Source: Psychrobacter sp. PL19 (GTDB lineage: Bacteria; Pseudomonadota; Gammaproteobacteria; Pseudomonadales; Moraxellaceae). Taken from it: a DNA stretch of 64,000 nucleotides. Every line of letters begins with the position of its first letter. Positions within the stretch are counted from its first letter, which is position 1. The notes beneath the pieces were generated by a model, which had not been told where the DNA came from, searched no databases, and worked only from the letters and a program-made list of their open reading frames with translations. The position numbers were made by a program, and so were the translations under genes. The stretch spans positions 1,302,001-1,366,000 of the forward strand of contig NZ_JAGING010000001.1 in assembly GCF_017875835.1 (NCBI RefSeq), read 5' to 3'. This document shows positions 24,251 through 33,988 of the stretch, one piece after another.

Positions 24251-24898
24251 TTAAGTTCGTGGTGCATCGGGTTGTCTCGCAGGATCAGCATCATAAAATG
24301 TCTTAAGTGACCGGCAGTGTTCATCGATAGCGACAATATTAGGATAAGGGCTTAAGTCTACTTTAAAGCGACGAGCGGAGGAGACCTGCGGGATTAAATA
24401 GCAATCTGCAAACGTTGGACTGTCGCCATAACAGAATTTTCCACGTGATTTATCTGCGGCCAATAGCTCTTCTAAAGCAGCAAAGCCCTCAATCATCCAA
24501 TGCCGGCACCAGGTCATAACCTCATCTTCGCCAACCGTCAACTCATTACGTAGATACTGTAAAATACGCCGATTATTAAGAGGATGGATATCACAACCAA
24601 TCATGGCGCTTAGTGCACGTACTTGCATACGACCTGCCGCATCTTTAGGCAATAGAGGATTTTGTGCATAAGTTTCTTCCAACCATTCTAAAATAGCGGG
24701 GCTTTGATACAGCAGTAAGTCATCGGTCTGTAGAACTGGCACTAGTCCTTGCGGATTGATAGATTTAAATGCTGACTTTAATTGTTCGTCTTGGGCCAAA
24801 TTAACCGAGATATAATCGTAATCTAAACCTTTAAGATTCAGGGCAATACGAGTACGGTAAGAGGTAGTACTGCGAAAGTAATTATAAAGCTGCATCAT
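24251..24898 (-). CDS. maiA: Maleylacetoacetate isomerase
   Basis: A 215-residue zeta-class glutathione transferase that turns maleylacetoacetate into fumarylacetoacetate in tyrosine breakdown. The N-terminal thioredoxin fold has YNYFRSTTSYRTRIALNLKG and NPQGLVPVLQTDD. The helical domain has GDSPTFADCYLIPQ. The usual SSC active-site triplet is replaced by STTS here, so a Cys is missing but the Ser/Thr remain. AGGAG precedes two adjacent ATGs. Other pathway genes (fahA, hppD, phhA) lie within 10 kb. Confidence 0.9.
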   Translation of the reverse strand: MMQLYNYFRSTTSYRTRIALNLKGLDYDYISVNLAQDEQLKSAFKSINPQGLVPVLQTDDLLLYQSPAILEWLEETYAQNPLLPKDAAGRMQVRALSAMIGCDIHPLNNRRILQYLRNELTVGEDEVMTWCRHWMIEGFAALEELLAADKSRGKFCYGDSPTFADCYLIPQVSSARRFKVDLSPYPNIVAIDEHCRSLKTFYDADPARQPDAPRT

Positions 24899-25082
24899 TA
24901 TTGTTCTCCTTTTTGGGCGTGTATCAAACGCTCGTTATTACCTATATAATCAGTCATCATAAAAGATCAGTTAAATTTGAAGAAGGGTTATAGGTAGCTA
25001 TAGGCTAGACGCTTTACACCGAAAACTCTGTAGCAACCTATTCTAAATAATCAAATACCAGCATCAAGTCCTAGCTGTATTC

Positions 25083-25116
25083 AACTGAGCAAATAATATT
25101 TAACTGAGCAAATAAT
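25083..25116 (+). repeat. Duplicated 15-base motif at the IclR start
   Basis: AACTGAGCAAATAAT occurs twice with a 19-base period, the second copy ending at the ATG of the IclR gene. It may be a recent duplication that moved the leader sequence. Confidence 0.6.
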
Positions 25117-25981
25117 GCCATCAGATAACGCGTTAACATCGAACAAGAACCAGAGTGGCGTGCAGTCACTTGAGATTGGATTGTCGATATTAGATGTACT
25201 CATAGGGCATAATGAACCCATGATGCTAAAAGACATTGCTCAAGCGATGCAAATGCACCCAGCAAAATCTCATCGTTACTTGGTTAGCCTGATTCGTAAA
25301 GGCTATGCCAGCCAGCTCAGTGATGGACGCTATAGTTTGGGCGAAAGAGTGAAGACCTTAGCAGCACTGGGGCATACTGGACTGAATCAAAATAATATCT
25401 TGGAGCGACTCACTACTGCTGCCAACGCTATCAAAGATACTCTAAACTGCGGCGTGCAAATCGCCAAGTGGTTTAGCGAAGGACCTATTATTATTCAGTC
25501 TGTTGAGCCAGATAGCCCGATCAGTATCATCACACGTATAGGCTCACGCATGCCGCTTACTACTTCAGCGACAGGGCAGTTGTTTGCTAGCTATCAACCA
25601 GATGCGGTCATCAAACCACTAGTAATTGCAGAATGGCAGAGTAAATCTGATAGCGCTAAGCCACTAAGCAGCGCTGAGGCATCGGACAAATGGCAGTACT
25701 TTACCCAGCTACAAGCTGATATCCGCGCGCAGGGTTATGCGACGGTCACCGGTGATATGTTAATGGGAATCAACGCTATTACTATCCCAATACTGTTGCC
25801 AAAACTTACCCATGCTACAGAGGTCACTAAAAGTGTCATTCTTAAAGAGACGTTTGCTAAAGAGAGCCTCTTAGAGTATGCCATCACAGTTATCGGTACT
25901 TCAGAGCAATTACCTATGAGTAAACAGCATGAAGTAGCTGACAAAATACGCGCGATAGCCCAACGTTATCAAGTTGCTTAG
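25115..25981 (+). CDS. IclR family regulator of tyrosine/homogentisate catabolism (HmgR-like)
   Basis: A 288-residue regulator with an N-terminal winged helix (IGLSILDVLIGHNEPMMLKDIAQAMQM, then HRYLVSLIRKGYA) and a C-terminal IclR ligand domain (SRMPLTTSATGQLFASY, VTGDMLMGINAITIPI). It lies between maiA and the VOC/fahA genes, as HmgR does in Pseudomonas hmg clusters, so homogentisate is the probable ligand. This is inferred from position. Confidence 0.88.
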   Translation: MPSDNALTSNKNQSGVQSLEIGLSILDVLIGHNEPMMLKDIAQAMQMHPAKSHRYLVSLIRKGYASQLSDGRYSLGERVKTLAALGHTGLNQNNILERLTTAANAIKDTLNCGVQIAKWFSEGPIIIQSVEPDSPISIITRIGSRMPLTTSATGQLFASYQPDAVIKPLVIAEWQSKSDSAKPLSSAEASDKWQYFTQLQADIRAQGYATVTGDMLMGINAITIPILLPKLTHATEVTKSVILKETFAKESLLEYAITVIGTSEQLPMSKQHEVADKIRAIAQRYQVA

Positions 25982-26030
25982 CGGTTATGGTTATCTAAAA
26001 TATTTTTATATCGAGCCCTTTTGTATTCAA

Positions 26031-32469: not shown

Positions 32470-32621
32470 TATAGTCGATTCAATTTAAAAAAGGTACAGT
32501 GCTACTGGGATGAATTTTTTGCAGCCTCTGTCACGCTTGCGAGCAGCAAGCAAGAAAGATTTATACCAGTGGCACATTACTATTGCTATACACGACCCTT
32601 TTTTATTGTGAACTGACTATA
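32470..32621 (+). repeat. TATAGTC-type intergenic element, copy D
   Basis: 152 bases with clear terminal inverted repeats: TATAGTCGATTCAATTTAAA at one end and TTTATTGTGAACTGACTATA at the other. Inner arms GTGCTACTGG and CCAGTGGCAC also pair, so the whole could fold into a long hairpin. It ends 63 bases before phhA, between hppD and phhA. The best-preserved copy. Confidence 0.85.
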
Positions 32622-32683
32622 CAGCTAGAAAGAATGGCATGGTAGTACAACTATAGTGAACTGACTTCAGAAGGACAGCAGGC

Positions 32684-33553
32684 ATGGAAAGCACAGCTTC
32701 TACTACTCAAACTCCCAATGCTAATAGCAGCCAGACTAGCAATGAAAAGCAACCCTATGTGTCGCATCAAATTGATGTTAATGGCCACATTGACTATAGC
32801 GACCAAGAGAACGCTATATGGCAAGCATTGCTTAACAGTCAAGCCCAGCAAATACCCAATCGTGCTTGCTCAGAGTATCTAATAGGACTGGATAAGCTGA
32901 ACCTACCTACCACCAAAATCCCACAACTTTATGATATTGACACGGTACTACAAGACACCACTGGCTGGCAGACTGCCGCTGTGCCTGCATTGATTAGCTT
33001 TGGTAAGTTCTTTAAACTCTTAGCCAATAAACGCTTCCCGGTAGCTACCTTTATCCGTCGTTCTGAGGATATGAACTATATCGAAGAGCCTGATATTTTT
33101 CATGAAATTGTCGGGCATTGTCCGCTGCTTACTCACCCTGCTTTTGCTGCCTTTAACGAGACTTATGGCAAGCTGGGATTAAATGCCAGTAAAGAAGAGC
33201 GGATGTGTCTGGCCCGGTTATACTGGTTTACCATCGAGTTTGGTTTGGTTGGACAAAGCAGTGACCAAGGTAAGGAATCTCGTAGAATTTATGGCGGCGG
33301 TATATTAAGCTCTCCCTCTGAGACCGTATATGCCTTAAGCGACGACCCCCAACATCAACCAGAGTGCCGGGAATTTGATTTGTTGGATGTTTTACGCACC
33401 CCTTATCGTATAGATCAAATCCAGCCTATCTACTATGCCATTGATCATTTAGACACGCTATTTGATATCGTTGATAGTGACATTATGAGTGTGGTCAAAA
33501 AAGCGCTGTCATTAGGTCTGTTTGAGCCCACCTACCCAGCAAAGAATGCCTAA
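32684..33553 (+). CDS. phhA: Phenylalanine 4-monooxygenase
   Basis: A 289-residue pterin-dependent iron hydroxylase converting phenylalanine to tyrosine. The iron site is seen in EPDIFHEIVGHCPLLTHPAF (two His) with a Glu in WFTIEFGLVG, the usual facial triad. The first 35 residues are a Ser/Thr/Gln/Asn-rich extension. The cofactor-recycling gene phhB follows 93 bases later. Confidence 0.96.
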   Translation: MESTASTTQTPNANSSQTSNEKQPYVSHQIDVNGHIDYSDQENAIWQALLNSQAQQIPNRACSEYLIGLDKLNLPTTKIPQLYDIDTVLQDTTGWQTAAVPALISFGKFFKLLANKRFPVATFIRRSEDMNYIEEPDIFHEIVGHCPLLTHPAFAAFNETYGKLGLNASKEERMCLARLYWFTIEFGLVGQSSDQGKESRRIYGGGILSSPSETVYALSDDPQHQPECREFDLLDVLRTPYRIDQIQPIYYAIDHLDTLFDIVDSDIMSVVKKALSLGLFEPTYPAKNA

Positions 33554-33646
33554 ATAACTTATTGGCTAAATCAAACCATTCAATAAATCAGATCAGATTA
33601 AATTAAAAAAACCTAGCACAACTCAAAACAATAATTGGAGAGTAGC

Positions 33647-33988
33647 ATGACCGAATTATCACAAGCCAGCTGTGAAGTCTGCCGTATCGGTGCCCCAACA
33701 GTCAGCGATGCAGAGGCAAGCGAGCTGTTAAAACAGATTCCTGATTGGTCATTGATTAATGTTGATGGCGTCAACCAATTGCAGCGTAAATATAAGTTTA
33801 AAAACTTTGTTAAGGCTATGGCATTTGCCAATCAACTAGGAGATATTGCTGAAGAGGAAGGTCATCACCCTGGCATGTTAGTAGAGTGGGGCAAAGTGAC
33901 GGTTACGTGGTGGTCGCATAGTATTAAAGGCCTGCATAGCAACGATTTTATCATGGCAGCAAAAACTGATAAATTGCTCGATAAATAA
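33647..33988 (+). CDS. phhB: 4a-hydroxytetrahydrobiopterin dehydratase
   Basis: A 113-residue pterin-4a-carbinolamine dehydratase that recycles the pterin used by phenylalanine hydroxylase. The motif EEEGHHPGMLVEWGKVTVTW contains the catalytic histidines, followed by WSHSIKGLHSNDFIMAAKTD. The ATG at 33647 is chosen as it has GGAGAG nearby. It is co-transcribed with phhA. Confidence 0.95.
   Translation: MTELSQASCEVCRIGAPTVSDAEASELLKQIPDWSLINVDGVNQLQRKYKFKNFVKAMAFANQLGDIAEEEGHHPGMLVEWGKVTVTWWSHSIKGLHSNDFIMAAKTDKLLDK

What the first reader, a model, noticed from the sequence alone, without database searches (positions are those of the whole stretch)
24251..33988. Tyrosine pathway without HmgA; a VOC-fold protein may be the homogentisate dioxygenase
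The cluster contains the enzymes before homogentisate (phhA, tyrB, hppD) and after it (maiA, fahA), plus an IclR regulator of HmgR type, but no cupin-type HmgA of about 430 aa. In its place, between the regulator and fahA, is a 191-residue VOC protein (26031-26606) with a complete 2-His-1-Glu site (His10, His87, Glu135), as used by type I extradiol dioxygenases. A gene of the same kind sits in the Acinetobacter cluster. Non-orthologous replacement of the ring-cleavage step would explain the set. The function is an inference from position and motif.
Basis: partly seen in the sequence, partly recalled or inferred. Interest (0 to 1): 0.72.

Follow-up and report, generated by a model that had tools for sequence, protein, structure and literature searches.

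The report
Glyoxalase-fold homogentisate dioxygenase replaces HmgA
A Psychrobacter-like bacterium carries a tyrosine-breakdown gene cluster but lacks the usual ring-opening enzyme HmgA, and a small glyoxalase-fold protein encoded in the cluster, whose close Acinetobacter relative was deposited in the PDB as homogentisate 1,2-dioxygenase, likely does that step instead.

Summary
The cluster at 24251-33988 holds maiA, iclR, VOC, fahA, tyrB, lysR, hppD, phhA and phhB. The 3.12 Mb one-contig genome has no cupin HmgA (PF04209, PF20510) and no gentisate dioxygenase. The 191-aa VOC protein has a 2-His-1-Glu site, invariant in 105 relatives. Its top structural match is PDB 9u42, 78% identical, titled 'Homogentisate 1,2-Dioxygenase from Acinetobacter'. 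In 124 Moraxellaceae genomes HmgA is absent and all 40 with fumarylacetoacetase have the VOC gene. Among 239 Pseudomonadota, 10 of 10 FAH+/HmgA- genomes have a VOC homologue (7 of them a close one), against 4 of 31 FAH+/HmgA+. A P. putida HmgR-type operator lies upstream of fahA. The 'hmgA' of a published A. baumannii complementation study (PMC9431530) is most probably this VOC gene: the reported insertion duplication occurs once in the locus, inside it. So it is a new member of a kind already deposited. Open: many Alphaproteobacteria have the VOC gene and HmgA side by side, where its substrate may differ.

The parts
26031..26606 (-). VOC-fold protein, 191 aa; predicted homogentisate 1,2-dioxygenase. 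Predicted ligands His10, His87, Glu135; second sphere His118, Tyr125
24251..24898 (-). maiA, maleylacetoacetate isomerase (next step after ring cleavage)
   Evidence: TIGR01262 over cut-off
25115..25981 (+). IclR-family regulator, predicted HmgR-type
   Evidence: PF09339, PF01614; NCBIfam matches all below cut-off; operator
26798..28108 (-). fahA, fumarylacetoacetase (last step), 191 bases upstream of the VOC start on the same strand
   Evidence: TIGR01266 over cut-off
28347..28363 (-). HmgR-like operator, 2 mismatches to P. putida ATTACGTTATTCGTAAT, 239 bases upstream of the fahA ATG
   Evidence: only site with up to 3 mismatches in 64 kb, 0.29 expected; such a site upstream of fahA in 16 of 19 related loci
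28755..29951 (-). tyrB, aromatic amino acid transaminase
   Evidence: NF006719 over cut-off
30096..31058 (-). LysR-family regulator, divergent from hppD
   Evidence: PF00126, PF03466
31164..32285 (+). hppD, 4-hydroxyphenylpyruvate dioxygenase (makes homogentisate)
   Evidence: TIGR01263 over cut-off
32684..33553 (+). phhA, phenylalanine 4-monooxygenase
   Evidence: TIGR01267 over cut-off
33635..33988 (+). phhB, 4a-hydroxytetrahydrobiopterin dehydratase
   Evidence: NF002016 over cut-off

Best explanation
The 191-residue VOC protein at 26031-26606 (-) is likely the homogentisate 1,2-dioxygenase of this tyrosine cluster, standing in for the cupin HmgA, which the genome lacks. Predicted mechanism: a small one-domain type I extradiol-like enzyme binds Fe(II) through His10, His87 and Glu135; homogentisate (2,5-dihydroxyphenylacetate, made by HppD) binds the iron, and O2 is inserted across the C1-C2 bond to give maleylacetoacetate; His118 and Tyr125, which align with His246 and Tyr255 of catechol 2,3-dioxygenase, would assist. 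MaiA then isomerises the product and FahA splits it to fumarate and acetoacetate. The IclR regulator would control fahA-VOC through the HmgR-type operator upstream of fahA. Shown here: gene content, absence of HmgA, residue conservation, predicted fold and its match, co-occurrence, operator-like site. Inferred: substrate, metal and activity of this protein, and co-transcription of fahA and VOC.
Against: No enzyme assay was possible, and I did not see the paper or activity data behind 9u42, which has Zn, not Fe. VOC coexists with HmgA: 25 of 116 loci have an FAD monooxygenase beside VOC and hmgA within 7.5 kb, and 13 of 42 genomes searched by handle have HmgA, among them one hppD-VOC genome (L022) and one Marinomonas (L010). 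Of the ten FAH+/HmgA- genomes three have only a 40-42% homologue, and in those three and in two with a close homologue (G194, G196) VOC is far from fahA. 21 of 106 HPPD+ genomes have neither HmgA nor VOC. PMC7646211 reports the A. baumannii gene present in its pigmented strains and judged it to lack dioxygenase activity. The 9-mer is AT-rich: 2.04 matches were expected by chance in L012, and PMC9431530 calls it 11 bp in one place but prints nine letters; the mapping is strong only if the interrupted gene lies in this cluster.
Confidence: 0.92

Rival explanations
1. The VOC protein cleaves a related para-hydroquinone acid (for example a product of an FAD hydroxylase) or assists the pathway, and homogentisate is cleaved by an unrecognised enzyme.
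For: In many Alphaproteobacteria the gene follows an FAD monooxygenase (PRK08132) and a metallo-hydrolase and lies near cupin hmgA; residues 72 and 119 are K/S in 25 of 25 rows of that group, against Q in 31 of 37 and G in 32 of 37 hppD- or fahA/maiA-linked rows.
Against: None of the nine cluster genes here is an FAD monooxygenase; Moraxellaceae lack HmgA, yet this cluster and its relatives keep hppD, maiA and fahA; the orthologue is titled HGD; the A. baumannii insertion gives homogentisate pigment (PMC9431530).
Confidence: 0.05
2. Another dioxygenase of the genome, the LigB-type protein at G000:C1:30416, cleaves homogentisate.
For: It is the only LigB match in the genome.
Against: It is far from the cluster and best matches 4,5-DOPA-extradiol-dioxygenase (177 bits, below the 233 cut-off); the same family rings in the E. 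coli control, an organism without a homogentisate route (recalled).
Confidence: 0.02
3. The pathway is broken in these bacteria and homogentisate is exported as pyomelanin; the VOC protein is a glyoxalase or a thiol transferase.
For: PMC7646211 proposed a non-functional distant HmgA in pigmented A. baumannii (passages); the only Pfam family over its cut-off is Glyoxalase.
Against: VOC accompanies fumarylacetoacetase in 40 of 40 Moraxellaceae genomes with it; pigment is described as rare in A. baumannii (PMC7646211, PMC9431530, passages); scores for glyoxalase I and Fos models are far below cut-off.
Confidence: 0.02

Closest known systems
PDB 9u42, homogentisate 1,2-dioxygenase from Acinetobacter (molecule name 'Glyoxalase')
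   Same: 78% identity over 169 aligned residues, same fold, same residues at the ligand positions
   Different: Other genus; in the Acinetobacter loci the order is fahA-maiA-VOC, here fahA-VOC with maiA on the far side of iclR
Cupin homogentisate 1,2-dioxygenase HmgA/HGD (PF04209, PF20510)
   Same: Predicted reaction and place in the pathway
   Different: Another fold (cupin, recalled), about 430 aa; absent from this genome
Type I extradiol dioxygenases, e.g. catechol 2,3-dioxygenase 1mpy
   Same: H87=H214, E135=E265, H118=H246, Y125=Y255 in the alignment; VOC fold
   Different: Usually about 300 aa with two domains; cleave catechols, not para-diols (recalled)
VOC-fold hydroquinone dioxygenases PcpA, LinE, MhqO
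   Same: Cleave para-diols with a VOC iron site (recalled); MhqO 3oaj is a weak profile match, 31.7 bits
   Different: Two-domain, about 320 aa (recalled)
L-DOPA dioxygenase 6on3, Streptomyces sclerotialus
   Different: 16 to 18% identity; catechol substrate (recalled)

Membership tests
Cupin homogentisate dioxygenase (HmgA/HGD) | HgmA_C and HgmA_N domains | tested here: not met
   VOC protein matches VOC-type Pfam families only; genome has no PF04209 or PF20510 match
Acinetobacter VOC-type homogentisate dioxygenase (9u42) | Orthologous sequence and fold | tested here: met
Acinetobacter VOC-type homogentisate dioxygenase (9u42) | Placed with maiA and fahA, no HmgA in the genome | tested here: met
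Acinetobacter VOC-type homogentisate dioxygenase (9u42) | Converts homogentisate to maleylacetoacetate | not testable with these tools
   no assay; a paper on 9u42 was not found in the held library
VOC superfamily (PF00903) | Glyoxalase/dioxygenase domain over gathering score | tested here: met
   54 bits against 20.6
Type I extradiol dioxygenases | 2-His-1-Glu iron site plus second-sphere His and Tyr | tested here: met
   residues aligned to 1mpy and invariant; the metal itself and its geometry not tested
Type I extradiol dioxygenases | Over the cut-off of a named extradiol equivalog (catechol_2_3, HpaD) | tested here: not met
   30 and 24 bits against 320 and 321
Fosfomycin thiol transferases / glyoxalase I | Over family cut-off | tested here: not met
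   Fos_GSH 28.5 against 180, glyox_I 19.1 against 120

The most novel reading that the evidence does not exclude
This is a widespread second lineage of ring-cleaving enzyme for 2,5-dihydroxyphenyl acids, one-domain VOC proteins found in 25 of 239 sampled Pseudomonadota genomes at 56% identity or more. One branch replaces HmgA outright in the tyrosine pathway (Moraxellaceae, hppD-VOC operons of Beta- and Gammaproteobacteria). The other, in Alphaproteobacteria, works beside HmgA with a dedicated FAD hydroxylase and a metallo-hydrolase and acts on a different, still unknown hydroquinone acid, with residues 72 and 119 as specificity switches.
Probability: 0.35. Interest if true: 0.65.

Novelty: new member of a known kind. 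Interest (0 to 1): 0.5.

Why it matters
It closes the one gap in a catabolic pathway in Psychrobacter and Acinetobacter, where Pfam names the protein only Glyoxalase and no NCBIfam model reaches its cut-off, and it offers a reading of pyomelanin mutants of A. baumannii in which the ring-cleaving enzyme was taken for a non-functional HmgA. It also gives a compact example of one reaction served by two unrelated folds, and points to a large Alphaproteobacterial branch that has both.

Tried and rejected
A single-sequence AlphaFold model was useless (pLDDT 38.9); the alignment-based model replaced it. The simple claim 'VOC replaces HmgA wherever it occurs' was rejected: HmgA and VOC share clusters in Alphaproteobacteria. 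'hmgA' in PMC11945678 is a 633-base reference stretch that overlaps its hmgB reference by 14 bases; by length and position it looks like maiA, not the VOC gene, but I could not fetch it. Paper searches for a VOC-type homogentisate dioxygenase or for the work behind 9u42 found no describing paper (open-access PMC only, so this is not proof that none exists); the one candidate opened, PMC12718150, has homogentisate in a reference only. Family models did not give the substrate of the Alphaproteobacterial FAD monooxygenase, nor did PDB sequences. The gap between fahA and VOC folds only weakly better than shuffles (z -1.79), so no RNA element is claimed. Geometry of the predicted metal site was not measured: I saw no model coordinates among the script files. 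The E. coli, phage, plasmid, viral and metagenome collections were not searched.

Full report
What is there. The cluster was read and named with curated models: maiA, an IclR regulator, the VOC gene, fahA, tyrB, a LysR regulator, hppD, phhA and phhB. Six of these (maiA, fahA, tyrB, hppD, phhA, phhB) pass NCBIfam cut-offs. Every enzyme from phenylalanine to fumarate plus acetoacetate is present except a cupin homogentisate dioxygenase. The whole genome, one contig of 3,119,997 bases, has no match to PF04209, PF20510 or gentisate dioxygenase TIGR02272. Its one LigB-type protein lies at 30416, far away, and looks like a 4,5-DOPA dioxygenase, below that model's cut-off. The genome has one match to the VOC query at E 0.001 or better, the window gene itself.

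Distribution. In 124 Moraxellaceae genomes HmgA is in 0, fumarylacetoacetase over cut-off in 40, VOC in 47; all 40 are VOC-positive and the 7 others belong to one genus, g152. Two of the 47 VOC matches run past a stop near their end (G301, G357). Two of the seven were looked at: L177 has hppD-VOC-FAA hydrolase-NhaC-maiA, and L178 has VOC between a LysR gene and a 332-aa ORF that holds the weak FAH match; hppD was not seen there. Within the window's genus 23 genomes have both genes and the 13 others listed have neither. In a sample of 239 Pseudomonadota (tables) 41 have fumarylacetoacetase over cut-off: HmgA and VOC 4, HmgA alone 27, VOC alone 10, neither 0 (Fisher p 9e-7, not corrected for kinship; the ten come from five family labels, five of them from one). 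VOC here means 120 bits or more; three of the ten have only a 40-42% homologue, so the strict count is 7 of 10. In five of the ten VOC and fahA are near each other (G000, G074, G183, G195, G204); in the other five they are far apart. Of 106 genomes with HPPD over cut-off, 7 have both, 58 HmgA alone, 20 VOC alone, 21 neither. Four PF04209 matches of 21 to 112 bits were left out of the HmgA set (G016, G054, G134 and G187; the last, at 112 bits, is VOC-positive and may be a divergent HmgA), and one truncated match at a contig end (G168) was kept in; none of the four has fumarylacetoacetase over cut-off.

Neighbourhoods. 116 loci (80, 36; some genomes appear twice) fall into five sets by genes within a few kilobases: hppD directly beside VOC 16; FAD monooxygenase beside VOC with cupin hmgA within 7.5 kb 25; the same without hmgA in reach 28; fahA or maiA but neither of these 21 (the Psychrobacter and Acinetobacter loci among them); none of these 26. 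Genes were found by BLAST to a few reference proteins, so some neighbours will have been missed. In 42 named genomes tested for HmgA, completeness not stated: Psychrobacter, Acinetobacter and one Neisseriaceae MAG 0 of 16; Marinomonas 1 of 2; hppD-adjacent 1 of 6; FMO-linked without hmgA in reach 7 of 14; four chosen as hmgA-positive 4 of 4. So VOC is the only visible candidate in Moraxellaceae, but not a universal substitute. The tree (bootstrap not fully settled) joins Moraxellaceae, Marinomonas and the Neisseriaceae MAG (100/100) with mostly betaproteobacterial hppD-linked rows (90/85), apart from the mostly Alphaproteobacterial rows (83/88).

Regulation. The P. putida HmgR operator given in PMC8222616 (table passage) has one match with up to 3 mismatches in the 64 kb window, 2 mismatches at 28347-28363, 239 bases upstream of fahA (0.29 expected). 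In 19 related loci, 16 have such a site 23 to 233 bases upstream of the fahA frame as called, and 4 also or only upstream of hppD; there are 22 sites in 339 kb and 1 in one plain shuffle. The two Marinomonas loci have none.

Genetics in print. PMC7646211 (passages) saw the A. baumannii gene between hmgC and hmgR, called its product a type I ring-cleaving dioxygenase and supposed that it was inactive in its pigmented strains. PMC9431530 (passages) reports a pigmented strain with 'hmgA' interrupted by Tn2006, duplication CATTTTTTT, and loss of pigment when an intact copy is supplied; it does not say in the passages seen which family that gene belongs to. That 9-mer occurs once in the 18.5 kb A. 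baumannii locus L012, at 9076-9084, inside the VOC gene (read); it is also inside the VOC gene of L009, L014 and L016 but not of L008, L011, L015 or L017. By chance 2.04 matches were expected in L012, so the point rests on the site being in the one gene of the cluster that fits. PMC11945678 (passages) found ISAba125 128 nucleotides upstream of fumarylacetoacetase in an AT-rich palindromic region in two pigmented strains, that is, in front of fahA-maiA-VOC by the order in L012.

Verdict. The reaction for this very protein is inferred; the kind is already deposited for Acinetobacter. What remains open is the Alphaproteobacterial branch, which often keeps HmgA and pairs VOC with an FAD monooxygenase, with residues 72 and 119 (Q/G here, K/S in 25 of 25 hmgA-linked rows) as possible specificity positions, though these also follow the tree.

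Noticed in passing
L042:6009-9528 and similar loci: In Alphaproteobacteria the VOC gene often follows a metallo-hydrolase and an FAD monooxygenase of PRK08132 type, with cupin hmgA within 7.5 kb in 25 of 116 loci; substrate unknown.
   Followed up: partly
window 26642-26654 and 26689-26701: A perfect 13-base inverted repeat with a 34-base loop lies between fahA and the VOC gene; whether it attenuates, terminates or protects the message is unknown.
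   Followed up: partly
window 34144-35553; L177:9560-10984: An NhaC-type antiporter gene sits beside the tyrosine genes here and in the genus g152 locus, a possible tyrosine or phenylalanine carrier.
   Followed up: no
window 21522-22841: A TIGR00366-family protein (536.6 bits, just under its cut-off 575.75) lies near the cluster; it could be a transporter for acetoacetate or short fatty acids (recalled).
   Followed up: no
G000:C1:30416-31156 (L181): LigB-type protein resembling 4,5-DOPA-extradiol-dioxygenase, below the equivalog cut-off.
   Followed up: partly
G019, G082, G171, G190 (L131-L134): A 40-42% identical VOC homologue in one gammaproteobacterial family (f10), with none of the tyrosine reference genes found in about 8 kb on either side; three of these four genomes have fumarylacetoacetase and no HmgA.
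   Followed up: partly
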